From: Mycolicibacterium aubagnense
GTDB lineage: Bacteria > Actinomycetota > Actinomycetes > Mycobacteriales > Mycobacteriaceae
NCBI RefSeq assembly: GCF_010730955.1
Contig: NZ_AP022577.1
Coordinates: 1,302,001-1,366,000, forward strand
Direction of reading: 5' to 3'
Length of the DNA: 64,000 bases
Of this stretch, positions 13,270 to 64,000 are shown piece by piece. The position numbers and the translations under genes are program-made. Under the pieces are notes generated by a model, which did not search any database, had not been told where the DNA came from, and worked only from the letters and a program-made list of their open reading frames with translations. The stretch's first letter is position 1. Each line of letters opens with the position of its first letter.

Positions 13270-14892
13270 TCACGACGTCAGCATGTTCTGCCAGGTCTTG
13301 GGCGCCGACCGGGTGGCCAGATCGGCCTGCCGGGACAGTTCGCCGTCAGGGGCCACGTAGTCCCCCGTGCGCGGGTCGTACTGCGCGTAGCCGACGCCGC
13401 CGGTGAACGCGCTCGGAGCCGCCCCGGGCTCATCGGCCGGAGGTACGGCCGGCCGGGGCTCAACCGGGTCGCCACCGGGGATCGGCGGGACGCTACCCGC
13501 GTTGCCCGAAGCGCCCGGAGTGGTGATCGGATTCTGTGGCGGCAGCACCGGGTTGTTCGGCGGCGGGCCCGGTGGCGGAGCGCCGGCGGCCGGCCCTTCA
13601 CCGACCGGGGCATACAGCCCCTGGTCCGGGAACCACCGCGAATCCGGCGGCACGCCTTGCCGTTCCAGGCTGGGGTCACGGGGATACGGCCCGACGACGG
13701 GCATCCGCGGCGCCAGCGGCTCGTATTCCTGGTCGCTGTTACATATTTCGGCGGTCGGCGCGAACTTGCCCGGCTTCGTCATGCACGGCGTATTGCGAAT
13801 ACCGCGCACACCTACCGGTGCATCCTGCGGCAACTTGCAGTACACGTCGTCGGGCAGATCCAGCGTGGTGGTGTCATACGCCGGTCGCCACGACGAGGGC
13901 GGCAGAAAGCCCAAGGTGCATGGGGGCGGGTCTTCCGCACCGATCCGGAAGCTACCGATACCGAGGCCGGATCCGTTGCGCGACGTGCCATACGAGATCA
14001 CTGTCGAGACCACCGGCGGCAGCAACACCAGCGCCTGCTCCAGCCCGGGACGATAGGTCACGCCGAGCTGCCCCAACGAGGTCAAGTTGGCCAGCAGTAC
14101 GGGGACAGTGATTTTCAGCTTGTCGAAGAGCTTGGTCGCGTCGTCTGCCACCGCGGGCCCACGGTCCAGCAGGCTGCGGATCTGGGGATCGTTGGTGACC
14201 AACTGATCGGTGACGCCGGTCAGGCTGCCCGACCACACCCGCAGCGAATCTGTGCTCTGCACCTGGGAATCCAGCAGCGGCGAACTGTTCTCGATGAGCT
14301 CCCGTACCTTGTCCCGCTGTTCGTTCAGCCCACCGGCCAGTTTCCCGGACGAGTCCGCCAGCGATTGCAGGTCGTAGTCGGCGCCGTTGAACGCCTTGTA
14401 GGTTTCGTCGAGCAACTGGTGCAGCTTGTCCTTCGGCAGGGTGGCGACCAGTTCGCTCGCGCGGTCCATCATCGGCCCGATCGGCGGCGGGACGGCGTCG
14501 GGCCCGGCCCGCACGACGGAACCGTCGTGCAGATACGGCGCCGAATCGGTGTGTGGCAACAGATCGACGTACTGCTCCCCCACGGCCGACACACTGCGCA
14601 CCACGGCCGACAGATCCGCTGGGATCTTCGACGACGAGTCGAGCGACATCTGCACGCGCACACCGGTTTTCGTCAGCTCTACGTTGGTGACCCGGCCGAC
14701 CTCCACGCCGCGGTAGGTGACGTTGCTGAACCGGTACAACCCACCGGTGTCCGGCAGTTCGAGGGTGACGTTGTAGCGCCCGATCCCGGCGAGCGATTGC
14801 AGCTGCATGTAGCTGAAGGCCATCACGAAGACCCCGACAATGGAGGCGATCGTGAAGATCACCAACTGGATCCGGACAAAGCGCGACAGCAT
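13270..14892 (-). CDS. mceF: Mce family protein, MceF position
   Basis: 540-residue Mce protein, sixth and last of the operon. It has one N-terminal membrane anchor (VIFTIASIVGVFVMAFSYMQL), then the MCE/MlaD domain (TGGLYRFSNVTYRGVEVGRVTNVELT) and a long helical region. The C-terminal third is rich in proline and glycine, typical of MceF-type proteins. It would form part of the hexameric tunnel moving lipids from the outer envelope to the YrbE permease. The start shares one base with the mceE stop. Which mce locus this corresponds to cannot be decided from sequence alone. Confidence 0.93.
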   Translation of the reverse strand: MLSRFVRIQLVIFTIASIVGVFVMAFSYMQLQSLAGIGRYNVTLELPDTGGLYRFSNVTYRGVEVGRVTNVELTKTGVRVQMSLDSSSKIPADLSAVVRSVSAVGEQYVDLLPHTDSAPYLHDGSVVRAGPDAVPPPIGPMMDRASELVATLPKDKLHQLLDETYKAFNGADYDLQSLADSSGKLAGGLNEQRDKVRELIENSSPLLDSQVQSTDSLRVWSGSLTGVTDQLVTNDPQIRSLLDRGPAVADDATKLFDKLKITVPVLLANLTSLGQLGVTYRPGLEQALVLLPPVVSTVISYGTSRNGSGLGIGSFRIGAEDPPPCTLGFLPPSSWRPAYDTTTLDLPDDVYCKLPQDAPVGVRGIRNTPCMTKPGKFAPTAEICNSDQEYEPLAPRMPVVGPYPRDPSLERQGVPPDSRWFPDQGLYAPVGEGPAAGAPPPGPPPNNPVLPPQNPITTPGASGNAGSVPPIPGGDPVEPRPAVPPADEPGAAPSAFTGGVGYAQYDPRTGDYVAPDGELSRQADLATRSAPKTWQNMLTS

Positions 14893-16103
14893 CAGTGTCC
14901 CCCTTGATCCGGCGCCTGGGCCGGCGCCGGGCCGGGCAACGGTGGCGGCGCGACGTCGGGCGGCCGCGGTGCGAGCACCGCGGGCGGCGGCGCCACCCCG
15001 ATGCCGAGCGGGTCCTTTGTCTGCTCGGCGTATCCGGGATCACCGATCGCGGCCTGAATCCCTTGCGTCGGGTCACCGAAGCGGGTACCCATCCACAGTT
15101 CTCGCCGGATGCGCGGCAACGTCAGATCGAGTGTCGCCGACAAGTTCAGATAGTCGCCCTTGATGTAGCGGTCGATGGCCGCCTGCCCGTAGGGGAATGT
15201 CGTCGCCATCGCTATCGACTTGTCGATGACAATTCCGACGTCGGCCAGCGAGCGGGTGATGGGTTCCATGTGCCGGAGATTCGCAACGAGGTCGGCCTGG
15301 GTGTCGTTGATCAACGAGGTCGCGGTGTCACTGAAGGTCCGCAGTTTCGTCAGTGCCGCCGTGATATTCGGCCGCTGCGCGACCATGACTTCGAGCGCCT
15401 GGGGCATGATCCGCAGTGCCTCGGTGACGGCGTCGCGCTGGCCGGCGAACGTACCGATCAGTCCGTTGAGAGCCTTGATCGTGGTGACGATGTCGTCGCG
15501 TTGGTCATCGATCGTGCCGACAAACCGGTCCAGCCGGCCGATGAGGTCGCGGATCGATTCCTGGCGGCCGTCGAAGGCGTTGTTGAAGCTGTGGATGATG
15601 CCGCCGATCTGACCGACACCACCGCCGTCGACAACCGTCGCCAGGGCGGCCAGCGTGCGCTCGGTCGATGGATAGGTCGACGACTGGTTCAGCGGAATGG
15701 TCGTTCCGGGCGCCAACCGACCGGCCGGCGCCGTCCCGGGAACCGGGTCGAGCTCGACGTGCGTCGAGCCGAGCAGGCTGGTCTGCCCGATTTTAGCGAC
15801 GACGTTGCCGGGCACCACAACGCCCGGCTTGACCAAGATATCGACCTCGGCGTGCCCGTGGACCACCTTCATGGGTCCGACGCTGCCGACCACGACGTCG
15901 TCGATCATCACTGGCGAATTCGATTCCAGCGTGCCGACATTGGCGAACTCGGCATGGTAGACCGTCGCTCCCGCGACGCGTCCCGGCGCACCCGGCAGGG
16001 GCAGCGAATTCACGCCCTGCCAGGCGCACCCACTCAGCGGCGCCACGGCGCACACTGCCACGGCGAGCGGCCGCCAGACCCGGCGGGTGGTTGCGCGCGT
16101 CAT
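14892..16103 (-). CDS. mceE: Mce family lipoprotein, MceE position
   Basis: 403-residue Mce protein with a lipoprotein signal ending in the lipobox LSGC near residue 25, as expected for the MceE (Lpr) position. The MCE domain includes ATVYHAEFANVGTLESNSPVMIDDVVVGSVG. The C-terminus is proline-rich. The start at 16103 is chosen because it gives the signal peptide and a 4-base overlap with the mceD stop; upstream codons in frame belong to mceD. The lipid anchor would tether it in the cell envelope as part of the Mce complex. Confidence 0.93.
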   Translation of the reverse strand: MTRATTRRVWRPLAVAVCAVAPLSGCAWQGVNSLPLPGAPGRVAGATVYHAEFANVGTLESNSPVMIDDVVVGSVGPMKVVHGHAEVDILVKPGVVVPGNVVAKIGQTSLLGSTHVELDPVPGTAPAGRLAPGTTIPLNQSSTYPSTERTLAALATVVDGGGVGQIGGIIHSFNNAFDGRQESIRDLIGRLDRFVGTIDDQRDDIVTTIKALNGLIGTFAGQRDAVTEALRIMPQALEVMVAQRPNITAALTKLRTFSDTATSLINDTQADLVANLRHMEPITRSLADVGIVIDKSIAMATTFPYGQAAIDRYIKGDYLNLSATLDLTLPRIRRELWMGTRFGDPTQGIQAAIGDPGYAEQTKDPLGIGVAPPPAVLAPRPPDVAPPPLPGPAPAQAPDQGGH

Positions 16104-17338
16104 GAGGCGGGCCGTTCGGCCGGCAGCAGCATTCCCGGCAGGGTGGCCGGCGGTGGCGGCTCCGGGCCGGAGTAGCCGGGCATCAGTTTCGCTTCGCTGT
16201 AGATCAGCTGGTCGGGGCGCGGCGTGGGACCCAAGAACGGGTTGACCGGGATCGGCAGGTAATTGAAGTTCAGCAGTCGGAGCGCCGGACCCAGGTACTC
16301 GGCGCACTTCTTCGCGCCTTCCGCCGGATCGCCGCCCTGGATACCCGCGATGGCGCCGCACACGAACTGGGCCGGATTGGAGAACCCGTTGACGGCGAAC
16401 ATGCCGTTGGCGGTACCGGACACCGGGTCGTAGATGTTGTAGAAGTTCGACATCACCGTCGGGAACACGTGCAGGAGCTCTTCGAGTTCTTTCTTGTTCC
16501 CGACGAGGGTCTGCGTGACGTCGGTCAAACGGGTCACCGACTCGGCGGTGCGGTTGTTGACGCTCGACATGAAACGCTGGATGTCCCCGACCGCCACCGA
16601 CAGGTCCGTCAGCGCAGCGTCCAGGTCGGAGCGACTCGAATCGAGAACGCTCGACAGCGTCGCCAAGCGGTCCTCGAACTGCACGATCTCAGTGTTGCTG
16701 TTGCGCAACGCCGTCACGAACACCTGCAAGTTCTTGATGGTGTCGACGATGTTTCCACTGCCGTCGGCCAGCACCCGGCTCACTCCCGACAACTGCGCGA
16801 GGGTGTCCCGCAGCCGGTCACCGTTGCCGGCCATCGCATTTGCCGCACTGTCGACGAAACGTCCGGCGACGGACGTGTCCCCCGGCTTGGCCGGTCCGAG
16901 CTCGGTGACCAGCCTGGTCAGTTGCGCCTTGACTTCGTCCCATTCGACGGGCACGGCTGTGCGCGAGACCGGGATGACCGCCCCCTCCGGCAGCGTGGGA
17001 CCCGCGGTGCGGTAGGCCGGTGTCAGCTGGACATAACGCGCGGCCACGAGGTTCTGCTGGACGATCACTGCTTTGACGTCCGCCGGGATCGGTACGTCCC
17101 GATCCACGTTCAGCGTCAGCTTCACGGTCTGGCCCTGCGGCTGGACATCCGACACCGTGCCGACCTTGACGCCGGACACCCGGACTTCGTCGCCCGAGTA
17201 CAGACCGGTCACGCGGGTGAAGATGGCGCCGAAGGTCCTGGGTCCGAACATGTTTCGGTATCCGACGTAGATCCCGGCAGCCAGCGCGGCGCTTACCAGT
17301 GCCACGGCCAGGATTCGAATCAGCATCCGTCGGGTCAT
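16100..17338 (-). CDS. mceD: Mce family protein, MceD position
   Basis: 412-residue Mce protein. It has an N-terminal transmembrane segment (ILAVALVSAALAAGIYVGY), then an MCE domain with GLYSGDEVRVSGVKVGTVSDV, a helical middle and a C-terminus rich in P, A and E. Its stop overlaps mceE by 4 bases, and its start shares a base with the mceC stop. It would be one of the six subunits of the envelope-spanning lipid transporter. Confidence 0.93.
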   Translation of the reverse strand: MTRRMLIRILAVALVSAALAAGIYVGYRNMFGPRTFGAIFTRVTGLYSGDEVRVSGVKVGTVSDVQPQGQTVKLTLNVDRDVPIPADVKAVIVQQNLVAARYVQLTPAYRTAGPTLPEGAVIPVSRTAVPVEWDEVKAQLTRLVTELGPAKPGDTSVAGRFVDSAANAMAGNGDRLRDTLAQLSGVSRVLADGSGNIVDTIKNLQVFVTALRNSNTEIVQFEDRLATLSSVLDSSRSDLDAALTDLSVAVGDIQRFMSSVNNRTAESVTRLTDVTQTLVGNKKELEELLHVFPTVMSNFYNIYDPVSGTANGMFAVNGFSNPAQFVCGAIAGIQGGDPAEGAKKCAEYLGPALRLLNFNYLPIPVNPFLGPTPRPDQLIYSEAKLMPGYSGPEPPPPATLPGMLLPAERPAS

Positions 17339-18456
17339 CAGTGCGGCACCTGCCCCACGGTCGGCCCCTCGGTCTCTTCGCGGTTATAGCAATGGTCGAA
17401 GCTGTACGGCGGCTTGAATCCGTTGCGTTCACCACCGCAGTTCGGCCACGGGAACAGCGTTCGGGGCTGTACTCCAAGTGCCGCATCGATGAAGGGCTGT
17501 ATCTCATGTCCGTCAATCAGATTGGCGACGAACGCGTTGTAGTACCCGCCGTTGTTGACCGCTTCGCCCTGAGTCATCACGACCTTCTTCAGACCCGGGA
17601 TCGCCTTCGCGATGTTGTCCTTGTTCTTCTCCAGCACGGCCACCACCGAATTGAGGCGATCCAGCGCCGGCGCCAGCTGCGCTTCGTTGTCATGCACCAG
17701 GGCCGACAGCTGCTTGGCCACCGCCGAGGTGTTGGCCAGCAGCGTCACGATGGCCTCGCGCCGCTCCACCAGCATGCCGAGCAGCGAATTGGCGTTCAGA
17801 ATAAGGGTGTTCAGCTGGTCGCTGCGCTGTGACAGCACGTTTGTGACGTCCGCCGCACTCTTCAACAGCTCCGACAGCGATTGATTGCGGTCGTTCAGCG
17901 TCCGCGACAGTCTGGCCACCCCATCGAAGGTCGGCCCCAACTGAGGCGCTATCTGGTCCAGGGTCTGTGACAACAGGTCCAGCGACTGGCCCAGCTGGTT
18001 GGTGTCGGTCCCGGCGGTGTTCTTCGTCAGCTCATTGACGGCGTCGGTCAGCGAATACGGTGACGACGTGCGGGAAATCGGGATCACCGACCGCGGCTTG
18101 AGCGGCTTGTCGCCCGCCGACACCAGGGCGAGCGTGCGCGCTCCCAGCAGTGTTCCGGTCCGGATGTGGGCGGCGGTGTCCAAGCCGAGAGACACCCGGC
18201 TGTCAACCGTGAAATCCACTACCGCGTCACCGTTTTCCAGTGACACTTTCGAGACCGTGCCGACCTTCATGCCCGACACCACGACGTTGTTGCCAACCTC
18301 CAGGCCGCCCGCCTCCGAGAACACCGCCGAGTACCGCACCGACATCGCCCAGTCCTTGAACTTGTCCGGCGACAGACCGACCAGGATCACCAGGATCACG
18401 GTCACGACGCCGATGATGCCGACGCGGATGAGTCGTGCACTGCCATACTTCAGCAT
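17338..18456 (-). CDS. mceC: Mce family protein, MceC position
   Basis: 372-residue Mce protein with an N-terminal membrane anchor (VGIIGVVTVILVILVGL) and an MCE domain (AGGLEVGNNVVVSGMKVGTVSKVSL). A long alpha-helical region carries regularly spaced leucines. ATG at 18456 directly abuts the mceB TAG. It belongs to the same transport complex as its neighbours. The cysteine pair near the C-terminus (FPWNPNCGGE-like segment and HCYN) could form a disulfide in the oxidising envelope (inference). Confidence 0.93.
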   Translation of the reverse strand: MLKYGSARLIRVGIIGVVTVILVILVGLSPDKFKDWAMSVRYSAVFSEAGGLEVGNNVVVSGMKVGTVSKVSLENGDAVVDFTVDSRVSLGLDTAAHIRTGTLLGARTLALVSAGDKPLKPRSVIPISRTSSPYSLTDAVNELTKNTAGTDTNQLGQSLDLLSQTLDQIAPQLGPTFDGVARLSRTLNDRNQSLSELLKSAADVTNVLSQRSDQLNTLILNANSLLGMLVERREAIVTLLANTSAVAKQLSALVHDNEAQLAPALDRLNSVVAVLEKNKDNIAKAIPGLKKVVMTQGEAVNNGGYYNAFVANLIDGHEIQPFIDAALGVQPRTLFPWPNCGGERNGFKPPYSFDHCYNREETEGPTVGQVPH

Positions 18457-19473
18457 CTACTGGCACCTCCCCGCGTTGGACCTGACCCACGGCAGGACGA
18501 CGACCCGGCCCTCGCGGTCGTTGACCCGCACCGTGAGGTCGCAGATGTAGTACTGGATCCAGCTGCCATATGCGCCGGTTCGCGCTTCTTTGCGGTAGTT
18601 CTCGGGTGCGCGTTGCAGTGCGGTGTCCAGGGTCTGCTTGTCCTGGTCCAGGTTATTGCCGAGCCGCAGCAGCTGGTTCACCGTGCCGGCCAACGGCTTT
18701 CGCGTCTGGCTGAGTAGATCCGAGATCGTTGCCGTGCCCTTGTCGAGCGAGTCGATGGCAGCACCGACCGGATCCCGGTCTGCCGACAACCCCGTCACCA
18801 GACGCTCCAGCCGGTCGACAGCGGTCGAGAACTTGTCCCCGTCGCGCGCCATGGTCCCGATGAGCACCTTCAGGTTGTCGATCAGCTGGGTGATCACCTC
18901 GTTGTTGTCCGCCAAGGAACCGCTGAACGAAGACGTATGCGCCATCAGCGAATTGATGCCGTCGGCCTGTCCTTGAAAGACCTGCAGCAGCGACGACGTC
19001 AAGGCGTTGACATCCTGAGGGTTGAGGCCCTGCACGACAGGCTTCAGACCGCCCAGCAGGAGATCCAGGTCGAGTGCCGGTGCTGTCCGCTCCAGCGGGA
19101 TCGTGGATCCGGCGGGCAGCACCTGGGTGGGTCCGGGCCCGTCGACGAGGTCGAGATAGCGATCACCGACGAGATTCAGGTACCGCACCTCGGCGCGGGT
19201 GCCGGCGGTGACCGGGATGGAGTTGTCGGCGTTGAACGAGACGGTGACCTTGCGGTCGTCACCGAGATCGAGGCCGGTGACGGTGCCGACCCGGATGCCG
19301 GCGACCCGGACAGAGTTCCCGGCCCGCAGGCTCGATGCGTCGGCGAACACCGCCTTGTATTCCTTGGTGGATCCGGTTCGCGTCTCGCCGAGCACCATGA
19401 ACAGGAACCCCGACGCGATCATCATGACCACGGCGAAGATGGCGAACTTGACCGCTGCCCCACGTGCGTTCAT
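18457..19473 (-). CDS. mceB: Mce family protein, MceB position
   Basis: 338-residue Mce protein, shorter than its siblings, as usual for MceB. It has an N-terminal anchor (FAIFAVVMMIASGFLFMVL) and an MCE domain (DASSLRAGNSVRVAGIRVGTVTGL). The start at 19473 is chosen because it gives the membrane anchor and a 4-base ATGA overlap with mceA; the longer in-frame reading covers the tail of mceA. Part of the lipid-import complex. Confidence 0.93.
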   Translation of the reverse strand: MNARGAAVKFAIFAVVMMIASGFLFMVLGETRTGSTKEYKAVFADASSLRAGNSVRVAGIRVGTVTGLDLGDDRKVTVSFNADNSIPVTAGTRAEVRYLNLVGDRYLDLVDGPGPTQVLPAGSTIPLERTAPALDLDLLLGGLKPVVQGLNPQDVNALTSSLLQVFQGQADGINSLMAHTSSFSGSLADNNEVITQLIDNLKVLIGTMARDGDKFSTAVDRLERLVTGLSADRDPVGAAIDSLDKGTATISDLLSQTRKPLAGTVNQLLRLGNNLDQDKQTLDTALQRAPENYRKEARTGAYGSWIQYYICDLTVRVNDREGRVVVLPWVRSNAGRCQ

Positions 19474-20660
19474 CGTCCGGGTTGTCCGATCTGTGGGGTG
19501 TTGCGCGGCGGCCCATCGATGGGGCCGTACAGCAGCTGCTTGAGGCCGTCGCTGTTGAGAATGATGTTCTGGTTGCCGTACTTGAACGGGTTGGTGCCGG
19601 TGTCGGTCACGACGTAGTTCGGATGCTGTTCGAAGGCCACGGGCAACACCTCGCAACGTGGACCGCCTTTGGCGGCCACCTTCGGCAGATCGCCCGGGTA
19701 GCGGTACCGCTCATGGCCCCACAAGAAGCTCGCCGACAGCGGCAACCCACCGGGGGCGGGATCCTGGGGCTGAGACCCGAAGTCCGCCAATCCCTTCAGT
19801 GAACAGGTGAGTGCGGGGTTGTACTCGTCGAACAGCCCGGAGAGCGGCAGGAAGAGGCGTAACACGTTGGCCAGCCCCTGGTGGTTCGCGGCGATGAACT
19901 CGTTGCCGGTGTCGGCGAAAGTGCTCATGCTCTTCAGCGTGGCATCGAGGTCCTTCTGCTTCTCGACGATGGACTTGCTGATCCTGGTCGCGTTGCGGGT
20001 GATCTGCACGAGATCATTCGCGGCGGCGTTGTAGGAGTCGAGCACCGTTGGCGCAGTGGATATCTCCGACTGCATGGTCGGCAGTGCCGGTTCGATCGTG
20101 GCAAGCAGGTTGTCGGCGTTGACAAGCGTCTGCCCGAAATCGTTGCCGCGGCCGGACATTCCGCGCGAGAGCGCGCCGAGGGTTTCGTTCAACTTGGCGG
20201 GTTCGACTTCGGCCAGGACCGAGGTCAGTTGTTCGAACACTGTGTTGATCTCCACGGTGACGTGGTCGGCCGACACCACCGCGCCCGCCACCAGGGGTTT
20301 CGGCGACGGGGTCTCGGGCGCTTTGAATTCGACGAATTTCGCACCGAACGCGGTGGATGAGGCGATGTCGACCGTGGCGTTCGCCGGGATGAGCCCGAGT
20401 TGATCGGGGTTCATCTCCAGGTGCAGCTCGGCCTTGCCATCGGTCCGCTCGTCGATCGAGGCGACGCGGCCGACCTCCACGCCGCGCATCTTCACCTTCG
20501 CGTCCGGGTTCATCACAAGGCCTGCTCGCTCGGCCAGTACCGTCACCGGCACCGACCCGGTGAACTCTCCGCTGAACCGGGCCAAGGCGAAGGCGACGAG
20601 GGCCGCGATCACGATGACGACCCCGGCCCCGGCCAGCAGCCGTGCAGAATTTCTTGTCAT
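19470..20660 (-). CDS. mceA: Mce family protein, MceA position
   Basis: 396-residue Mce protein, the first substrate-binding subunit after the permeases. It has an N-terminal anchor (GAGVVIVIAALVAFALARF), an MCE domain (RAGLVMNPDAKVKMRGVEVGRVASI), and a conserved SSTAFGAKFVEF segment typical of MceA. ATG at 20660 has GAGGTGGG upstream. A 36-base gap separates it from yrbEB. Like its neighbours it would contact lipids in the transport tunnel. Confidence 0.94.
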   Translation of the reverse strand: MTRNSARLLAGAGVVIVIAALVAFALARFSGEFTGSVPVTVLAERAGLVMNPDAKVKMRGVEVGRVASIDERTDGKAELHLEMNPDQLGLIPANATVDIASSTAFGAKFVEFKAPETPSPKPLVAGAVVSADHVTVEINTVFEQLTSVLAEVEPAKLNETLGALSRGMSGRGNDFGQTLVNADNLLATIEPALPTMQSEISTAPTVLDSYNAAANDLVQITRNATRISKSIVEKQKDLDATLKSMSTFADTGNEFIAANHQGLANVLRLFLPLSGLFDEYNPALTCSLKGLADFGSQPQDPAPGGLPLSASFLWGHERYRYPGDLPKVAAKGGPRCEVLPVAFEQHPNYVVTDTGTNPFKYGNQNIILNSDGLKQLLYGPIDGPPRNTPQIGQPGR

Positions 20661-20696
20661 CCCACCTCTACCGTCTGTCCTTCGCGCAAGCGCTCA

Positions 20697-21554
20697 TCAC
20701 CCGGACAAGTTGAAGTTGCCGTTGGTGCCGTAGATCGCCAGGGAGACCAGCAAGGTCACCGAAACGGTCGCGATGAGTGACGTACGCACGGCGTTGCCGA
20801 CCGCGACACCCACGCCGGACGGTCCGCCGGAGGCGAAGAATCCGTAGTAGGTGTGGATCAGCAAGATCACGAGCGCCATCAGGATCGCTTGCACGAAGGA
20901 CCAGAGCAGGTCGACCGGATTGAGGAACGTGGCGAAGTAATGGTCGTAGAGGCCGGCGGACTGACGGAACAGGTACACGGTGACGAACCGGCTGGCCAGG
21001 AACGAGAGGATCACGGCGATCGCGTACAGCGGCACGATCGCGACCATGCCCGCGACGATGCGCGTCCCGACCAGATACGCCACCGACGGGATGGCCATGG
21101 ACTCCAGGGCGTCGATCTCCTCGTTGATCCGCATCGCGCCCAGTTGCGCGGTGGCCCCCGCGCCGAAAGTCGCCGCCAAACCGATGCCGGCGATCACGGG
21201 CGCGGAGATGCGGACGTTGATGAATGCCGCCAGGAATCCGGTCAGCGCCTCGATGCCGATATTGCCCAGCGAGCTGTAACCCTGCACCGCCAGCGTGCCG
21301 CCGGCCGCCAGGGTCAGGAAGCCCACAATGACCACCGTTCCGCCGATGAGAGCCAATGTGCCTGCGCCCATGCTGATCTCGGCGACCAGCCGGATGGTTT
21401 CGCGGCGGTAGCGCAGCGCGGCGAACGGCGCTCCCACCAGAGCCATCCAATAGAACATGCCGTGGTCGCCGATGCTGCCCAGGACGCCCGCGGGCTTGCG
21501 TAGCAACGCCAGCAGCCTCGGGAACCGGTGGCGCAGGATCACCTGTGTCGACAT
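20697..21554 (-). CDS. yrbEB: YrbE/MlaE family permease B
   Basis: 285-residue integral membrane permease of the MlaE family. It has about five or six hydrophobic segments and the family segment ATAQLGAMRINEEIDALESMAI, which contacts the Mkl-type ATPase. It pairs with yrbEA 7 bases upstream to form the inner-membrane channel of the Mce importer. No ATPase (mkl/mceG) is encoded in the window; mycobacteria normally supply one shared copy elsewhere (family knowledge). Confidence 0.94.
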   Translation of the reverse strand: MSTQVILRHRFPRLLALLRKPAGVLGSIGDHGMFYWMALVGAPFAALRYRRETIRLVAEISMGAGTLALIGGTVVIVGFLTLAAGGTLAVQGYSSLGNIGIEALTGFLAAFINVRISAPVIAGIGLAATFGAGATAQLGAMRINEEIDALESMAIPSVAYLVGTRIVAGMVAIVPLYAIAVILSFLASRFVTVYLFRQSAGLYDHYFATFLNPVDLLWSFVQAILMALVILLIHTYYGFFASGGPSGVGVAVGNAVRTSLIATVSVTLLVSLAIYGTNGNFNLSG

Positions 21555-21561
21555 GACAGCC

Positions 21562-22377
21562 TCATTTCACCGTCATCCGGATACCGATCGCGGTCACGAC
21601 GACGTTGACGACGAACAACGCCATGAACGCGTAGACCACCGTCTCATTGACCGCATTGCCAACGGCTTTGGCGCCACCACCGGATATCGTCAGGCCGCGG
21701 TAGCACGCGATCAGCCCGGCGATCAGCCCGAACAGCGCGGCCTTGATACACGAGATGATCAGCTCGGGCACTCCGGTCAGGAGCGTGATGCCGGCCCCGA
21801 ATGCGCCCGGGTTCACATCCTGGACGAACACCGAAAACACGTAGCCGCCAAGGATTCCGATGATGCAGACCAGACTGTTCAGCAGCAGGGCCACGATTCC
21901 GGAGGCCAACATCCGCGGTGTCACCAGACGCTGGACGGGGTTGATGCCCAGCACCTCCATCGCCTGAATCTCCTCGCGGATGGTGCGGGAACCGAGATCG
22001 GCGCAGATCGCGGTGGCGCCCGCACCCGCGACGATGAGCACCGTGACCATCGGCCCGACCTGGGTGACCGCACCGAACGCCGCACCGGCCCCGGACAGGT
22101 CGGCAGCGCCGAGCTCACGCAGCAGGATGTTGAGGGTGAAGCTCACCAGCACGGTGAACGGGATCGCCACCAGCAACGTCGGGAGCAGCGAAACCCTTGC
22201 GATGAACCAGGATTGGTTCAGGAACTCCTGGAGATGAAACGGTCGCTGGAAGATGAACCCGAAGGCATCGGCGCCCATGGAGAACAGGCCGCCGACGGCC
22301 TGCATCGGCTTGCCGAAGCCACGGCCGAGCGCCGGCAACCCGGACGACCAGTGGTCCTGTCCTTTATTCGCGACCAT
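21562..22377 (-). CDS. yrbEA: YrbE/MlaE family permease A
   Basis: 271-residue MlaE-family permease, first gene of the mce operon. It contains the cytoplasmic coupling motif ADLGSRTIREEIQAMEVLGI and several transmembrane helices. ATG at 22377 is preceded by GGAAGGG at about 8 bases. The 236 bases upstream (22378-22613) hold no gene; the mce promoter presumably lies there, but I see no copy of either palindromic operator found elsewhere in the window. Confidence 0.94.
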   Translation of the reverse strand: MVANKGQDHWSSGLPALGRGFGKPMQAVGGLFSMGADAFGFIFQRPFHLQEFLNQSWFIARVSLLPTLLVAIPFTVLVSFTLNILLRELGAADLSGAGAAFGAVTQVGPMVTVLIVAGAGATAICADLGSRTIREEIQAMEVLGINPVQRLVTPRMLASGIVALLLNSLVCIIGILGGYVFSVFVQDVNPGAFGAGITLLTGVPELIISCIKAALFGLIAGLIACYRGLTISGGGAKAVGNAVNETVVYAFMALFVVNVVVTAIGIRMTVK

Positions 22378-57937: not shown

Positions 57938-59203
57938 TCAGACCCCCGCGGTCTTGCGCTGGTACTCCTCGATCCAGGCGGCGGTTTCGTGGTGCAGGTG
58001 CCGGATCAGTACTTCTTGGTCACACAACAGGAATTCGTTGACGGTGCGGGACTCGACCATGGTCTGGGTGGCCTCCAGCGTGTTGGCGTCCTGCAGGCCG
58101 TACTCCTTGAACGTCACCGCCGCGAGCTCCTGCCCGATGCGTTCGCGGGGACTGCGTGCCTGCGGGAAGTACAGCGTGCATTCGAAGAGATGCGTGTTGT
58201 ACGACGTCGGCCAGTAGTGATAGGTCAGGTACCAGCCCTGCCCCCAGAACAGCACGACGAAGTTCGGGAACAACTGGAACGAATCCAGGCCCCACGGATC
58301 ACATTTCGCCGGATTCAGGCCGGCGGGCAGCTCCCCCAGATCGGGTGAATCCCACGGCCCGAACAACCCGCTCTGGCAGATGTCCTCCATGGGCTTGCGC
58401 ATCTCGGCGCCCATCTCCCAGACGCGGACACCGGAGGTGCTGACCAGCCGGTGCGGCCCGTCGATGCGGTAGTGCGGCGCCTCGAAACCGGCCTGGGCCG
58501 CTGCCTTCGAATAGTTGGTCGGCGACTGGTTCGCATGCAGTACCGGTGCGTGGTAGAACTCCTGGAACGCGTCCATGTAGAGCTTCCAATTCGCTTTGAC
58601 CTCAGAGCGATAGGTGAACTTCGAGGTCAGTTTCTCGAACGGATAGCCCTCCAGACCCAGGATCATGGGGCCGAGAAAATCGCGCAGCGACTGCTCCGGT
58701 TGGGAGGCGAAGTTGACGAAGATGAAGCCCTCCCAGACGTCACAGTGCACGGGCACCAGCCCGTACCGGCCTTTGTCCAGGTCGAAGAACTCACCCTCCT
58801 GCTGCACGAACGTCAGGTTGCCGTCGAGGTCGTACCGCCAGGCGTGGTACTTGCAGGTGAACTGCTTACAGAAGCCCTTGGTCTCCTCCAGCGGCATGTC
58901 GTTCCACACCAGCTTGTTGCCCCGGTGGCGGCAGATGTTGTGAAAGGCCTTCACCTCGCCGGCATTGTTGCGGACCACGATGATCGAGGTGTTCACGACC
59001 TTGAGCTCTTTGGTGAAGTAGCTGCCTTTGCGCGGAAGTTGTTCGACACGACCGACATTCAGCCACGCACGCTTGAACACCGCCTTGCGTTCGATCTCGT
59101 ACTGCTCGGGACTGATGGAGTCCTCGTACGACACCGGTTCGGTGCCCAGTCGCGGATAGTGTTCAGTCCAACTGCCTTCGGGCGGTTTGGGGAACCGGGC
59201 CAT
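57938..59203 (-). CDS. Rieske non-heme iron oxygenase, copy B
   Basis: 421-residue oxygenase paralogous to 52637-53896. Rieske ligands are C91-x-H93 and C117-x2-H120 with a 23-residue spacing; the iron site is EFYHAPVLH (H218, H223). The opening MARFPKPPEGSWTEHYPRLG is nearly the same in copy A. GAGGAGGAG precedes ATG 59203. First gene of a minus-strand operon (Rieske, small protein, amidohydrolase, MarR) with a MarR-type site 57 bases upstream. No own reductase; may share the FNR protein at 54688. Confidence 0.92.
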   Translation of the reverse strand: MARFPKPPEGSWTEHYPRLGTEPVSYEDSISPEQYEIERKAVFKRAWLNVGRVEQLPRKGSYFTKELKVVNTSIIVVRNNAGEVKAFHNICRHRGNKLVWNDMPLEETKGFCKQFTCKYHAWRYDLDGNLTFVQQEGEFFDLDKGRYGLVPVHCDVWEGFIFVNFASQPEQSLRDFLGPMILGLEGYPFEKLTSKFTYRSEVKANWKLYMDAFQEFYHAPVLHANQSPTNYSKAAAQAGFEAPHYRIDGPHRLVSTSGVRVWEMGAEMRKPMEDICQSGLFGPWDSPDLGELPAGLNPAKCDPWGLDSFQLFPNFVVLFWGQGWYLTYHYWPTSYNTHLFECTLYFPQARSPRERIGQELAAVTFKEYGLQDANTLEATQTMVESRTVNEFLLCDQEVLIRHLHHETAAWIEEYQRKTAGV

Positions 59204-59296: not shown

Positions 59297-59899
59297 TCAG
59301 GCGAACTTGATCGCCGACACGTACATGTCGACGACCGGCCGGAACAGGTCGACGCCGTCGAGCTCGTTGCTCAAGACGATGGCATCGCTGGTGGCGAGGA
59401 GAATCTGGGCGAACGTGACCGCCGGTATCAGCAGCGTCCCGCCCAGGCGGTCGACACCCTCGACGATGAAGCCGGCCAACGCCTCCACCACCTCAGATCG
59501 CCTGGCCGCCACTCGATCTCGCACCTCTGGGTTGCGCAGGAGATAGAGGGTGAACTCGTACCCCAATGCGGCATGCTCGGCACCGCGGCCACGGCTCAGC
59601 TCCAGCCAGCGTTCGGCGATCTCGTCGCGCTCGTGCGCTCCGACACGTTCCGACCTCGACATCACTTCCGCGAATTTGTCGAAGTATTGGCGCCAGTAGC
59701 GGTCGTTGACCGCGAGGAACAGATCTTCCTTGGTGGCGAAGTGCTTGTAAATCGCCCCCTTGGTATAGCCGGCAACCGACGCGATCTCATCGAGAGTTGC
59801 TGGCGTGAAGCCCTTTTCGGCGAAGACGTCCTCAGCTGCATTCAACAGCAGCGAACGCGTGTGTTCCAGTCGCCGCTCCCGCGTCCAACGCTCCACCAT
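59297..59899 (-). CDS. TetR family transcriptional regulator
   Basis: 200-residue TetR-type regulator. The N-terminal DNA-binding segment is SLLLNAAEDVFAEKGFTPAT followed by LDEIASVAGYTKGAIYKHF, and the C-terminal domain is helical. It is divergent from the AveC-like/NorQ/NorD operon with 90 bases between starts, where an AGATAC-N6-GTATCT inverted repeat is found. Probably the local repressor of that operon. Confidence 0.92.
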   Translation of the reverse strand: MVERWTRERRLEHTRSLLLNAAEDVFAEKGFTPATLDEIASVAGYTKGAIYKHFATKEDLFLAVNDRYWRQYFDKFAEVMSRSERVGAHERDEIAERWLELSRGRGAEHAALGYEFTLYLLRNPEVRDRVAARRSEVVEALAGFIVEGVDRLGGTLLIPAVTFAQILLATSDAIVLSNELDGVDLFRPVVDMYVSAIKFA

Positions 59900-59989: not shown

Positions 59990-61144
59990 GTGAGTGAACT
60001 GCTGAGCAAGAAATCCACTGTCACCGAGTCGCTGGACGGATCCGCGAATCTCGGTGGCAGCCAAGCCCCGTCGGCGCCAGTCAAGATCTGGGCGTTCTTC
60101 GGCGGCGCCCTGCTGCTCTTCCAGATTTATGTCTGGACCCGCTGGGTCACCGGGCCATATTTCGTCCGGGTACCCGGCGGCCCGACCGACCCGCCGACCT
60201 ACATGAAGGTCATGCTCATGGTGAACTGCGCCTTCATGGTGGTGGCATTCCCCACCGCCGTCTGGTGGTTCCTCATCAGGCCCTGGCTGCGCGAGCGGCG
60301 CATCACGCTCGACGGCATGCTGTTCGTCTCGTGCGCCCTGTTCTTCTTCCAGGATCCCCTGCTCAACTACACCAACACCTGGTGCACGTACAACATGTGG
60401 ATCTGGAACATGGGCTCCTGGACGTCGAATATCCCCAGCTGGGTCTCCCCCGAATCGCCGGGACACCAAGTGGGCGAACCGCTTCCCATCAACATGCCCG
60501 GCTACGGCATGGTGCTGGTGACGTTGATGGTCGGCTGTTTCGCGATGCGCAAGATCAAGTCGCGCTGGCCGAACATCAGCAACTTCCGATTGATCTGTGC
60601 GACATACGTTTTCTGCTTCTTCTTCGACTTCGTCATGGAGGGACTGATCCTGGCGCCGATCGGGCTCTTCGTATATCCCGGCGCGATTCGCGCAGTGTCG
60701 ATCAATGCCGGTACCTACTACCAATGGCCGGTATACGAAGGACTCATGTGGGGCGCCGTCATGACAACGCTGTGCTGCCTGCGGTTCTTCACCGATGACC
60801 GCGGTCGCACGGTCGTCGAGCGCGGGCTGGACCACGTTCGCGGCGGGGTGTTCCGGCAGCAGATGGTCCGGTTCCTGGCGATCTTCGCCGCCTGCAGTGC
60901 CGCGTTCTTCTTCCTGTACAACGTGCCCGCCCAGTGGTTCGGCCTGCACTCCGACCCGTGGCCCGAGGACGTGCAGAAGCGGTCGTACTTCAGCCAGAGC
61001 GTCTGCGACGAGAACACTCCGTGCCCGAACCCGGTGCTGCCCATGCCGACCAAGCGCTCCGGATACATCAACGTCGACGGCAAGCTCGTCCTCCCACCGG
61101 GCACAGAGATGCCCAAGGACGCCCCCGTCCAAACCGGGAAGTGA
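59990..61144 (+). CDS. AveC-like (spirocyclase family) membrane protein 1
   Basis: 384-residue integral membrane protein with about seven hydrophobic segments (IWAFFGGALLLFQIYVW first, FLAIFAACSAAFFFLYNV last). It shares the layout of the AveC family, whose Streptomyces member forms the avermectin spiroketal. Conserved strings with the next gene are FFQDPLLNY, GTYYQWP-YEGLMWG, and FTDDRGRT-VERGLD. GTG 59990 with AGGAGG upstream is preferred over the longer frame start. A role in mycobacteria is not established; an intramembrane cyclase, hydroxylase-like or lipid-modifying enzyme is possible. Confidence 0.8.
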   Translation: MSELLSKKSTVTESLDGSANLGGSQAPSAPVKIWAFFGGALLLFQIYVWTRWVTGPYFVRVPGGPTDPPTYMKVMLMVNCAFMVVAFPTAVWWFLIRPWLRERRITLDGMLFVSCALFFFQDPLLNYTNTWCTYNMWIWNMGSWTSNIPSWVSPESPGHQVGEPLPINMPGYGMVLVTLMVGCFAMRKIKSRWPNISNFRLICATYVFCFFFDFVMEGLILAPIGLFVYPGAIRAVSINAGTYYQWPVYEGLMWGAVMTTLCCLRFFTDDRGRTVVERGLDHVRGGVFRQQMVRFLAIFAACSAAFFFLYNVPAQWFGLHSDPWPEDVQKRSYFSQSVCDENTPCPNPVLPMPTKRSGYINVDGKLVLPPGTEMPKDAPVQTGK

Positions 61145-61150
61145 GGCCGC

Positions 61151-62305
61151 ATGAGTGATCTGTCGCAGAAACGGGCAGTCGTCACCGAACCGCTCAGCGG
61201 GGTAGCCCTCGGCTCACCTCCCAAGATCACTCCCGTGCGCATCTGGGCCGCGGTCGGCGGGGCGATCCTGGCGTTCCAGCTCTACGTCTGGACCCGGTGG
61301 GTGACGGGGCCGAACTTCGAGCGCGTCCCGGCAGGGCCGAGTGACCCACCGACGTATATGAAGGCCATCCTGTTCACCTGGACGGGTGTCATCATCGTCG
61401 GATTGCCGGTTGCGGTGTGGTGGTTCATCATCCGCCCCTGGCGGCGGGAGCGGCGCATCACGCTCGACGGCATGCTACTGATCGCGTGCGGCCTGCTGTT
61501 CTTCCAGGATCCGTTGCTGAACTACGTCAACACGTGGAGCACCTACAACACCTGGATGTGGAACCGAGGTTCGTGGGTGCAGGACGTCCCCGGCTGGATG
61601 TCGTTCGGCGAGCCCGGCCGCATGATGGCCGAACCATTCCTGATGAACGCACCCGGCTACTGCTTCGTCCTGCTGTGCACGATGCTCGGCTGCTGGGTGA
61701 TGCGCAAGGCAAAGTCCAAGTGGCCCAGAATCAATATGCTCGGTCTGATCGGCGTCGTGATCGTGTGGACGTTCTTCTTCGATTTCGTGATCGAGGGCCT
61801 GTTCCTCATGCCGATGGGGCTGTTCACCTATCCGGGTGCCATCCGGGCCCTGTCGGTCAATCCCGGAACCTACTATCAGTGGCCGATCTACGAAGGGCTC
61901 ATGTGGGGCGGCGTGCAGGCGGGCCTGTGCTGCCTGCGCTACTTCACCGACGACCGCGGCCGCACCTTCGTCGAACGCGGGCTGGACACCGTGCGCGGTA
62001 GCTTTGTGACGCAACAGATCACGCGCTTCCTGGCGATCTTCGCCGCCTGCAGCGCATTCTTCTTCATCCTGTACAACCTGCCCGCCCAGTGGTTCGCCAT
62101 GCATCAGGATCCGTGGCCCGAGGACCTCTTGAAGCGCTCGTACTTCCTGATGGGTGTCTGCGGCGACGGCACCGACCGGGCCTGTCCCGATCCGTCGATC
62201 CCGATTCCGCTGCAGAACTCGAGCTACGTCAACATCCACGGGCAGCTGGTGACGCCCGACGGTGTCACACTTCCGAAACTCGTTCCCGTCGAGAAGGGCA
62301 AATGA
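61151..62305 (+). CDS. AveC-like (spirocyclase family) membrane protein 2
   Basis: 384-residue paralogue of the preceding gene, same length and same hydrophobic layout, and highly similar throughout (shared WTRWVTGP, DPPTYMK, RRITLDGML, PAQWF--H-DPWPED--KRSYF). It starts 6 bases after the first copy. Conserved H and D/E residues between helices could bind a metal. Equal length and tight spacing suggest a tandem duplication that may give a heterodimer. Confidence 0.8.
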   Translation: MSDLSQKRAVVTEPLSGVALGSPPKITPVRIWAAVGGAILAFQLYVWTRWVTGPNFERVPAGPSDPPTYMKAILFTWTGVIIVGLPVAVWWFIIRPWRRERRITLDGMLLIACGLLFFQDPLLNYVNTWSTYNTWMWNRGSWVQDVPGWMSFGEPGRMMAEPFLMNAPGYCFVLLCTMLGCWVMRKAKSKWPRINMLGLIGVVIVWTFFFDFVIEGLFLMPMGLFTYPGAIRALSVNPGTYYQWPIYEGLMWGGVQAGLCCLRYFTDDRGRTFVERGLDTVRGSFVTQQITRFLAIFAACSAFFFILYNLPAQWFAMHQDPWPEDLLKRSYFLMGVCGDGTDRACPDPSIPIPLQNSSYVNIHGQLVTPDGVTLPKLVPVEKGK

Positions 62306-62306
62306 C

Positions 62307-63125
62307 TTGCTGAACAACACTTCTGCAGTTGTCAGACCGGTGCCGAACGCACCGTTCTACCGCGCCATCGGCGACGAGGTGGAGGTCTTCCGCGCGGCGT
62401 CCCGCCGGGGACTGCCGGTGCTGCTGAAAGGCCCGACGGGATGCGGGAAGACCCGCTTCGTCGAGGCGATGGCGCACGAACTCGGGCGAGACCTGATCAC
62501 CGTCGCCGGCCACGAGGACATGACGTCGGCAGACCTCGTCGGCAGGTTCCTGCTGAAGGGCGGTGAAACCGTCTGGGTGGACGGGCCGTTGACGCGGGCG
62601 GTTCGCGACGGCGCCATCTGCTACCTCGACGAGATCGTGGAGGCGCGCCAGGACACCACCGTCGTCATCCATCCACTCGCCGACCACCGCCGCGAGCTGC
62701 CGGTCGACCGGCTCGGCGTCACGCTGCCCGCGGCACCGGGCTTTCAGCTCGTCATCTCCTACAATCCCGGCTATCAGAGTGTCCTGAAGAACATCAAGGA
62801 GTCCACCCGGCAACGGTTCGTCGCCATCGAGCTCGACTTCCCGCCGGCCGCCGCCGAGACGGAAATTGTGATGCACGAGGCCGGCATCGATGCCGAAACC
62901 GCACGTGGTCTGGTCAAATTCGGCAACGCCATCCGCAACCTGGACGGCTCACCGCTTCGCGAAGTGGCGTCCACCCGCATGTTGATTCTGGCCGGCGAAC
63001 TCGTCGCGGAAGGACTCAGCATGCGCACTGCCGTCCAGTCGGCGGTCGTCAAGGTGCTCTCCGACGACCACGACATCGTCCGCGCCCTCGGCGAGCTCGC
63101 GGACGCCGTCCTCCCCCGGCCGTGA
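62307..63125 (+). CDS. NorQ/CbbQ-type MoxR AAA+ ATPase
   Basis: 272-residue AAA+ ATPase. Walker A is GPTGCGKT (42-49), Walker B is AICYLDEI (103-110), and an arginine-containing ESTRQRF segment follows sensor 1. NorQ and CbbQ work with a von Willebrand protein (NorD, CbbO) to insert metal into, or reactivate, large enzymes. Its partner overlaps by GTGA downstream. The start is uncertain: TTG 62307, just after the AveC-like stop, or GTG 62340. No nitric oxide reductase or Rubisco gene is near, so the client is unknown. Confidence 0.88.
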   Translation: MLNNTSAVVRPVPNAPFYRAIGDEVEVFRAASRRGLPVLLKGPTGCGKTRFVEAMAHELGRDLITVAGHEDMTSADLVGRFLLKGGETVWVDGPLTRAVRDGAICYLDEIVEARQDTTVVIHPLADHRRELPVDRLGVTLPAAPGFQLVISYNPGYQSVLKNIKESTRQRFVAIELDFPPAAAETEIVMHEAGIDAETARGLVKFGNAIRNLDGSPLREVASTRMLILAGELVAEGLSMRTAVQSAVVKVLSDDHDIVRALGELADAVLPRP

Positions 63126-64000
63126 CCGATTCTGCCGGCCCCGAGCAGTTTCGGCTCCTCGCCACCCATGTCGCGGGCCGACCGGTCGATATCGCCGCGG
63201 CGCGGGAGGGTGGTGCCGCGTATACCGATGGCCAGGTCGTCTACGTCTCCGCGGCGCCGCCCGCACAGCAGCGCAGCGAGGTGCTGGTGCAGAGCGCGCT
63301 ACTCGGCGCGGGCAGCCTCGATGCGGCCATGCTGAAGTCGCTCCGCGGCCGTCCTGCGGTGGCGCGACGCTACCTGGCGCTGGAAGGTCGCCGGGTGCTG
63401 GCCGAACTATCCCGCGACCTGCCACTCGCCGCCGAACTCGGTGCCGGCGAACCTCACACGGGCAGTGCCGGCCAGTCACTGCGGATCGCCAAGGGCCGCA
63501 CGGCCGTCGAGGACGCGCCGGACTGGTTCGGCGTCATCAAACCTTCTCGGCTGCTGGCCTCGCCGATGGGTCCCGGCGCGCGCCCGACCGACAAGGACCT
63601 GCAGCTGAAATTCGAGGTGCCGGAGGTTCAGGAGGAACTGGGCGACGATGAATCGGACGGGGAAGCAGAAGACTCAGAGGACAGCAAGATCCTCAAGCTT
63701 TTCGAAGCGCCAATGGCGTCGCGAACGATGTCTGATTTCCTGTCCAAGCTGTTCGGCAGCTCGCGATCGAAGGGCGAGGACAACGCCGGCGCCGAGATGC
63801 AGATCGGCAGCGTTCGGCGGGTCGGCAAGGTCGGCCCCGATGCACGGCCCTTACCCACGCAGATCCGCTTCACCGACGACCGCCGTCCCGGTGCCACGCT
63901 GGGAGTCGGCGGCGCTCTCCATCCGGAGTGGGACGTCTTCGCGGGCCGGTACAAAGAGGACTGGTGCCGGGTCATCGACTTTCCGCTGACCGCCGCCGCA
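63122..64000 (+). CDS. NorD-like protein (VWA expected beyond window), 3'-truncated
   Basis: Frame open from GTG 63122 (GTGA overlap with the ATPase) to the end of the window, 293 codons. The segment HPEWDVFAGRYKEDWCRV near the window end is typical of NorD/CbbO proteins just before their VWA domain. An acidic stretch rich in D and E lies around residues 170-190. The metal-ion-dependent adhesion site of the VWA domain would fall outside the window. With the upstream ATPase it would form a metalloenzyme activation pair. Confidence 0.8.
   Translation, partial: MTDSAGPEQFRLLATHVAGRPVDIAAAREGGAAYTDGQVVYVSAAPPAQQRSEVLVQSALLGAGSLDAAMLKSLRGRPAVARRYLALEGRRVLAELSRDLPLAAELGAGEPHTGSAGQSLRIAKGRTAVEDAPDWFGVIKPSRLLASPMGPGARPTDKDLQLKFEVPEVQEELGDDESDGEAEDSEDSKILKLFEAPMASRTMSDFLSKLFGSSRSKGEDNAGAEMQIGSVRRVGKVGPDARPLPTQIRFTDDRRPGATLGVGGALHPEWDVFAGRYKEDWCRVIDFPLTAAA

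What the first reader, a model, noticed from the sequence alone, without database searches (positions are those of the whole stretch)
59990..64000. Tandem AveC-like membrane proteins coupled to a NorQ/NorD-type activation pair
Two similar 384-residue AveC-like proteins are followed, 1-6 bases apart or overlapping, by a MoxR-class ATPase and a NorD-like protein. NorQD/CbbQO pairs activate metalloenzymes, yet no nitric oxide reductase or Rubisco is here. The AveC-like proteins, or an enzyme just beyond the window, may be the client, which would imply that they are metal-dependent membrane enzymes. This is the strongest candidate for an undescribed system.
Basis: inference. Interest (0 to 1): 0.8.

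Follow-up and report, generated by a model that had tools for sequence, protein, structure and literature searches.

The report
Molecular motor paired with AveC-like proteins
Environmental mycobacteria and some relatives carry AveC-like membrane proteins right beside a two-protein ATP-driven motor best known for loading iron into nitric oxide reductase, which suggests that this motor has a second, so far undescribed kind of customer.

Summary
The genes are as described: a divergent TetR gene, then AveC1, AveC2, Q (NorQ/CbbQ-type AAA+ ATPase) and D (NorD-type VWA protein), tightly packed. D ends at 64813, past the window; the next two genes are no obvious client. The genome has no Rubisco hit and only two COX1 genes, both cytochrome-oxidase-like by score. 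The pairing is widespread: in 76 of 80 AveC loci Q follows AveC directly, and 29 of 31 strong CbbQ_C hits in 200 genomes of the order lie 1.1-2.0 kb from an AveC gene. It recurs in three gene orders and in two AveC clades separated on a quick tree by QD-less Streptomyces relatives. Types I and II share outward-side carboxylates (D120, E161, D211, E215), no common conserved His, and an Asp pair (D267/D268) on a predicted cytoplasmic loop, rare in the Streptomyces relatives and placed like the NorD-docking carboxylates of NorB. Best reading: QD is a dedicated ATP-driven activator of AveC-like membrane enzymes. New variant of a known kind.

The parts
59297..59899 (-). TetR-family regulator, divergent from the operon
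   Evidence: PF00440 61.1 bits, cut-off 24; a homologue of at least 250 bits in 58 of 64 QD-linked loci
59990..61144 (+). AveC1, AveC-like membrane protein, 384 aa
   Evidence: PF17198 307.2 bits; one of two type I subclades
61151..62305 (+). AveC2, AveC-like membrane protein, 384 aa, seven long predicted helices
   Evidence: PF17198 281.9 bits; AlphaFold2 model pLDDT 92, pTM 0.88
61508..61510 (+). codon of AveC2 D120 (outward-side carboxylate)
   Evidence: 131 of 131 type I, 11 of 11 type II
61781..61795 (+). codons 211-215 of AveC2: D211 and E215 on helix 196-219
   Evidence: 131 of 131 type I, 11 of 11 type II; 0 of 12 type III
61949..61954 (+). codons of AveC2 D267-D268, proposed docking site for D (inference)
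   Evidence: acidic in 130 and 131 of 131 type I, 11 and 11 of 11 type II, 2 and 4 of 14 Streptomyces rows
62307..63125 (+). Q, NorQ/CbbQ-type MoxR AAA+ ATPase (272 aa from the TTG)
   Evidence: CbbQ_C 95.2 bits, AAA_5 117.1 bits; NorQ 9qh4 333 bits
63122..64000 (+). D, NorD-type VWA protein, 563 aa; first 293 residues in the window, stop at 64813 (on L003)
   Evidence: VWA_2 31.8 bits, cut-off 27, on the whole protein; NorD 9qh6_G E 9.7e-34

Best explanation
The operon is a dedicated activation module for AveC-like membrane proteins. Q forms an AAA+ ring and D is its VWA adaptor, as in NorQD. D docks from the cytoplasm with its MIDAS metal onto the Asp pair D267/D268 at the cytoplasmic end of AveC helix 6. 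ATP-driven twisting of D is passed through the helix bundle to the outward-side pocket (D120, Y132, N133, E161, Y170, D211, E215, Q243) and matures or reactivates the enzyme, perhaps by letting in a metal ion held by the carboxylates. Shown here: the gene arrangement, its recurrence, intact motor motifs, the conservation pattern. Inferred: that AveC is the client (likely), the docking site (moderate), metal insertion (about two in five if the client is right), the substrate (some lipophilic compound; a guess from neighbouring catabolic genes).
For: Q directly follows AveC in 76 of 80 loci (the 80 are the best of 118 found). Anchored on Q instead, 29 of 31 CbbQ_C hits of 89 bits or more in 200 genomes lie 1.1-2.0 kb from an AveC hit on the same strand. 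Three gene orders: AveC-Q-D, D-Q-SBP-AveC and AveC-D-Q. Types I and II are each one group on the tree and are parted by QD-less Streptomyces proteins. 0 of 12 Streptomyces genomes with AveC-like genes have CbbQ_C. Walker A, sensor 1 and the first two MIDAS motifs are intact in all Q and D frames examined (77 and 72). D267/D268 and W97 on the predicted cytoplasmic side go with QD, as NorB D220/E222 do (PMC9976466).
Against: No experiment. The carboxylate pocket is partly shared with QD-less relatives, so QD is not needed for the pocket as such. No His conserved in both types. 4 of 80 loci lack Q beside AveC yet keep D267 and an acidic 268. Type III keeps D267 in 12 of 12 without an adjacent Q, and one type III genome, G036, has no CbbQ_C hit at all. 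Q of G252 and G316 groups with type II Q (91) although their AveC groups with type I, so partners do not follow each other strictly. Many rows are close relatives.
Confidence: 0.6

Rival explanations
1. QD acts on AveC but inserts no metal. Like CbbQO on Rubisco it pulls AveC open to release a trapped lipophilic product or inhibitor, or helps it fold or assemble; the carboxylates are acid/base catalysts.
For: Outward-side residues are partly kept in QD-less Streptomyces relatives; no His ligands; CbbQ is nearly as close to Q as NorQ (285 against 333 bits), and CbbQO releases inhibitors (search listing of PMC4660213).
Against: In the closest studied case the same motor loads a metal into a membrane protein (PMC13036017, PMC9976466), and the QD-independent qNOR shows that a shared pocket does not speak against metal loading.
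Confidence: 0.25
2. The client is a metalloenzyme nearby and not AveC, first of all the Rieske non-haem iron oxygenase (57938-59203) whose genes sit across the TetR gene.
For: It is a real metalloenzyme family, and a close homologue (700 bits or more) is in the held stretch of 36 of 64 QD-linked loci.
Against: Missing at that threshold in 28 of 64 loci; on the other strand; no Rieske gene among the genes read in the second QD-AveC module of this genome, while AveC is.
Confidence: 0.1
3. No functional tie: AveC and QD are neighbours by common descent of one catabolic island.
For: Most of the 80 loci are Mycobacteriaceae and Nocardiaceae, so many are not independent; other catabolic genes travel along.
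Against: Three gene orders, two separated AveC clades and other families plus proteobacterial MAGs, while the other neighbours come and go.
Confidence: 0.05

Closest known systems
NorQ/NorD activation pair of cytochrome-c nitric oxide reductase
   Same: Q aligns over 255 residues with solved NorQ and D with the VWA part of solved NorD; adjacent overlapping genes; polytopic membrane protein gene beside them; Asp pair at the cytoplasmic end of a helix
   Different: No NorCB evident in the genome; the partner is AveC-like; the first 147 residues of D are in neither alignment with the solved NorDs
CbbQ/CbbO Rubisco activase
   Same: Q is in the CbbQ/NirQ/NorQ family (PF08406) and matches solved CbbQ, 285 bits
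   Different: No Rubisco hit in the genome; partner is a membrane protein
AveC of Streptomyces avermitilis (spiroketalisation and dehydration in avermectin biosynthesis)
   Same: Same Pfam family, Spirocyclase AveC-like PF17198
   Different: S. avermitilis AveC itself was not in hand. The Streptomyces rows used are 20-29% identical to AveC2, their genomes lack CbbQ_C, and most lack D267/D268. No spiroketal chemistry is shown for the mycobacterial proteins
Third QD pair of the same genome with a 232-aa membrane protein (mem3)
   Same: D, Q and a polytopic membrane protein gene in a row
   Different: mem3 has no Pfam match and no profile similarity to AveC

Membership tests
AveC_like (PF17198) | profile match above the curated cut-off | tested here: met
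   307.2 and 281.9 bits, cut-off 26.6, whole profile
AveC spirocyclase (function) | forms or dehydrates a spiroketal | not testable with these tools
   needs enzyme assays; family name alone says nothing on activity
NorQ/CbbQ AAA+ ATPases (PF08406) | CbbQ_C and AAA_5 domains above cut-off | tested here: met
   95.2 bits (cut-off 20.6) and 117.1 bits (cut-off 22)
NorQ/CbbQ AAA+ ATPases (PF08406) | Walker A, Walker B, sensor 1 intact | tested here: met
   window Q has all; in 77 Q frames Walker A 77, sensor 1 77, Walker B YLDE in 69 by my pattern, 8 not matched and not looked at
NorD-type VWA partner | VWA domain with MIDAS DxSxS, T, D and similarity to NorD | tested here: met
   VWA_2 31.8 bits, cut-off 27; DASGS, YTRLG, LSDG; NorD E 9.7e-34
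NorD-type VWA partner | N-terminal domain and finger in the ring pore | tested here: inconclusive
   the alignments start at residue 238 or 148 of D; no complex model was made
NorQD system of cNOR | NorCB encoded with the pair | tested here: not met
   not in the operon or the next genes; two COX1 hits in the genome, 1176128-1177459 and 2016508-2017839, both far from the locus and cytochrome-oxidase-like by score
CbbQO system of Rubisco | Rubisco large subunit present | tested here: not met
   PF00016: 0 of 1 genome; 5 of 14 control genomes rang
NorQD-type metal insertion (mechanism) | client binds a metal only with Q and D | not testable with these tools
   needs protein and metal analysis
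NorQD-type metal insertion (mechanism) | cytoplasmic carboxylates on the client that go with QD dependence | tested here: inconclusive
   pattern seen for D267/D268, but on 14 divergent Streptomyces rows, and type III keeps D267 without an adjacent Q

The most novel reading that the evidence does not exclude
AveC-like proteins are metal-dependent membrane enzymes with an all-carboxylate outward-side metal site, loaded by their own NorQD-type motor from the cytoplasm. Separate copies of the motor serve type I AveC, type II AveC and an unrelated 232-residue membrane protein, so that NorQD pairs would be a general activation device for membrane enzymes that handle lipophilic compounds in mycobacteria and relatives.
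Probability: 0.25. Interest if true: 0.8.

Novelty: new variant of a known kind. Interest (0 to 1): 0.62.

Why it matters
NorQD is a well-studied motor for getting iron into a membrane enzyme, and nitric oxide reductase is the client described in the papers read here. A second client family, in bacteria that can be handled genetically, would show which parts of the mechanism are general. It would also give the AveC family, whose catalytic mechanism the 2026 AveC paper still calls open (PMC13303154, passage), a direct test: does it need a metal?

Tried and rejected
Other client downstream: after D come an APH-type kinase and a zinc-type dehydrogenase, quinone-oxidoreductase-like. An APH homologue of 500 bits or more is in 9 of 64 QD-linked stretches, so rejected as the client.

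mem3 as a distant AveC: hhalign probability 0.4%; its AlphaFold2 model was poor (pLDDT 63) and was not searched. Left open.

The two Q exceptions: G088:C22 looks like a remnant type I locus, in which the end of the TetR gene abuts the back part of Q, AveC is gone and D is open. G022:C98 has ABC-transporter genes upstream (named by eye) and a differently built D; I take it as another system.

Rfam: no match in the window at gathering thresholds.

Literature: searches listed no paper that by title or abstract joins AveC with NorQ/NorD; some gave 0 papers. One search returned French text (avec, Nord) and says nothing. The library holds open-licence papers only. Seen: PMC13036017 abstract, introduction, discussion and three results sections; PMC9976466 abstract, background and two sections; PMC13303154 abstract, introduction and passages; passages of PMC5819568, PMC10876796 and PMC6490886; everything else only as search listings.

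Rows dropped or chosen before counts: one search kept the best 80 of 118 relatives. One search took the 160 of 174 distinct AveC sequences that cover profile positions 75-290. One search left out L200/L204 (one gene in two frames, seen twice), leaving 14 Streptomyces rows from 11 genomes. One search used 64 of the 76 QD-linked loci (20 kb or more held). One search used 61 chosen sequences. The 131 type I rows differ in letters but are not independent genomes and include cut copies from overlapping loci and the four loci without Q. Of the 11 type II rows one (L026) is not beside a Q. Types were assigned by score thresholds of my own.

Full report
What is there. The window is bases 1302001-1366000 of contig 1 of a 6.32-Mb genome. 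AveC2 is 96-97% identical to proteins of Mycolicibacterium strains, M. llatzerense among them, so I take the host as a Mycolicibacterium. AveC1 (59990-61144) and AveC2 (61151-62305) match Pfam AveC_like far above cut-off and are 61% identical. Q (62307-63125) starts one base after AveC2. D (63122-64813) overlaps the Q stop and leaves the window. A TetR gene lies divergently upstream. After D come an APH-type kinase gene and a zinc-type dehydrogenase gene, then genes on the other strand.

Q and D are a real NorQD-type pair. Q aligns over 255 residues with solved NorQ (333 bits) and over 252 with CbbQ (285 bits). D aligns with solved NorD over its VWA part. Across the AveC loci Walker A and sensor 1 are intact in 77 of 77 Q frames and the Arg-finger motif in 76. 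DxSGS and the threonine motif are present in 72 of 72 D frames, the last Asp motif in 69 of 72. Walker B matched my pattern in 69 of 77; the other 8 were not looked at. The genome has no Rubisco hit and two COX1 hits that look like cytochrome oxidases, so neither known client is evident.

The pairing is general. A scan of genome contigs with AveC2 found 118 relatives and kept the best 80, from Mycobacteriaceae, Nocardia, Aldersonia, Actinomadura and MAGs labelled Pseudomonadales or Gammaproteobacteria. In 76 of 80 a Q gene directly follows AveC, 73 with D behind it and 3 with the contig ending first; 4 have no Q there: L092, L130, L146, L149. L130 is Nocardia alba, which has an AveC-Q-D locus elsewhere (L106). 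That scan is anchored on AveC, so I also anchored on Q. In 200 genomes of the order PF17198 gives 54 hits in 23 genomes and PF08406 53 hits in 26. Of the 31 CbbQ_C hits with 89 bits or more, 29 lie about 1.1-2.0 kb from an AveC hit on the same strand. 16 hits of 75-81 bits and 6 weaker ones do not. From the other side, 33 of 54 AveC hits lie within 3.1 kb of a Q; the other 21 are mostly a short form (type III), some divergent copies, three weak hits and one type II copy 52 kb from the nearest Q. In a sample of the phylum 12 of 396 genomes have AveC_like at all.

The link recurs in different forms. This genome has a second module: D, Q, a periplasmic-binding-type protein, AveC3, SDR, an aldehyde dehydrogenase and two P450s (the last three named by eye). 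G252 has AveC-D-Q (L172), and G316 has AveC-D with Q about 15 kb further on the same strand (L170). On a quick tree of 61 AveC sequences types I and II are each one group; II with III is parted from type I, the Streptomyces proteins and the rest at SH-aLRT 98. Several branches are long and the deeper placing is unsure. AveC1 and AveC2 of the window sit in two different parts of type I, so the tandem is an old pair. On the Q tree the Qs of mem3 modules (98), of type II (97) and of type I (87) group by partner, but Q of G252 and G316 joins type II Q (91) although their AveC joins type I, so the match is not strict. In Streptomyces 12 of 392 genomes have AveC-like genes, and 0 of those 12 have a CbbQ_C hit.

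A third QD pair has no AveC. In this genome D3-Q3 is followed by mem3, a 232-residue membrane protein without Pfam match. mem3 occurs in 12 of 121 genomes of the family. Six of these were also (G000, G007, G021, G034, G043, G088). In all six a mem3 gene is beside a Q of 75-81 bits, and in four (G007, G034, G043, G088) a second copy lies within about 4 kb. I did not look at the other 10 such Qs. In L105, L109 and L131 the mem3 module lies within 10 kb of the AveC module, and L115 has a type I module, a type II-like D-Q with type II and type III AveC, and a mem3 gene within about 11 kb (types). So QD pairs here keep company with polytopic membrane proteins, and the modules tend to gather.

Anatomy of AveC2. 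The AlphaFold2 model is confident, with long helices at 28-52, 68-100, 105-124, 163-190, 196-219, 246-264 and 285-316 (163-190 is broken at 172). Lys and Arg number 3 in 1-27, 5 in 91-104, 5 in 185-195 and 5 in 263-284, against 1 in 53-67, 2 in 125-162, 1 in 220-245 and 6 in the 68-residue tail. From this I infer that the N-terminus and the loops near 100, 190 and 270 are cytoplasmic. Polar residues conserved in type I (131 rows) and type II (11 rows) then fall into an outward set, Q119, D120, Y132, N133, E161, Y170, D211, E215, C345 (Q243 in 127 of 131 and 11 of 11), and a cytoplasmic set, W97, D267, D268, E275. No His is conserved in both; position 138 is Asn in all type I and His in all type II rows, and H318 is common in type I only. 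In 14 Streptomyces rows E215 is acidic in 14, Q243 kept in 14, N133 in 11, D211 acidic in 8, D120 in 7, E275 in 6, D268 in 4, Y170 kept in 3, D267 acidic in 2, W97 kept in 0; E161 falls in a gap in 11. So low conservation is not confined to the cytoplasmic side (Y170). Type III has lost N133, D211 and E215 (0 of 12) and D268 (1 of 12) but keeps D267 and E275 (12 of 12); one type III genome, G036, has no CbbQ_C hit.

Mechanism. In Paracoccus NorB, D220 and E222 at the cytoplasmic end of helix VII were picked because they are conserved in QD-dependent cNOR and not in QD-independent qNOR. Their mutants are inactive and iron-poor, and the helix carries two FeB ligands further up (PMC9976466). NorQ is proposed to twist NorD and stretch its linker to open the client (PMC13036017). 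AveC offers a parallel: an Asp pair at the cytoplasmic end of helix 246-264, whose other end is next to Q243 and the conserved outward residues. I propose that D docks there and that the motor opens the outward pocket. Whether this loads a metal or activates in another way is open; the pocket shared with QD-less relatives fits acid/base catalysis as well as a metal site.

Limits. Rows within a genus are not independent. The Asp-pair contrast rests on 14 divergent Streptomyces rows. The model's coordinates were not at hand, so the pocket is inferred from sequence and topology. No experiment on these mycobacterial proteins was found in the searches named under Tried and rejected. The substrate is unknown; Rieske, P450, SDR, aldehyde dehydrogenase and amidohydrolase genes nearby (some named by eye) point to breakdown of a lipophilic compound, which is a guess.

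Noticed in passing
L012:4448-7905 (G000:C1:1876448-1879905): Third QD pair of this genome, followed by a 232-aa membrane protein (mem3) of no Pfam family, highly conserved with invariant D84, N88, D95, H100, D116, H122, N124, E125. In four other genomes two mem3 copies lie near the Q. A possible third kind of client.
   Followed up: partly
L115:9962-21111 (MAG labelled Pseudomonadales): About 11 kb hold a type I AveC-Q-D module, a second D-Q with type II and type III AveC, and a mem3 gene. L105, L109 and L131 also have AveC and mem3 modules close together.
   Followed up: partly
L160, L178:4739-5524, L115:13706-14485 and relatives (type III AveC): A short AveC form (about 260 aa) that has lost N133, D211 and E215 (0 of 12) and often lies 9-14 kb from a type II QD module. 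It may be a partner subunit or have another role.
   Followed up: partly
L130, L146, L149: Type I AveC genes without Q, followed by or overlapping a P450-like gene instead; they keep the carboxylates, D267 and an acidic 268.
   Followed up: no
L177:9500-11575 (G088:C22): Remnant type I locus: the end of the TetR gene abuts the back part of Q, AveC is gone and D is still open.
   Followed up: partly
window 13270-22377: Run of genes on the minus strand that read like an mce lipid-import operon (MCE-like proteins and two YrbE-like permeases), named by eye from the frames; no family search was run.
   Followed up: no
PMC10876796 (passage): A Mycobacterium avium paratuberculosis field isolate (M04) has extra genes listed as spirocyclase, cytochrome P450, SDR, aldehyde dehydrogenase, two TetR/AcrR and CbbQ/NirQ family protein, which resembles the type II module; no function is discussed in the passage.
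   Followed up: no
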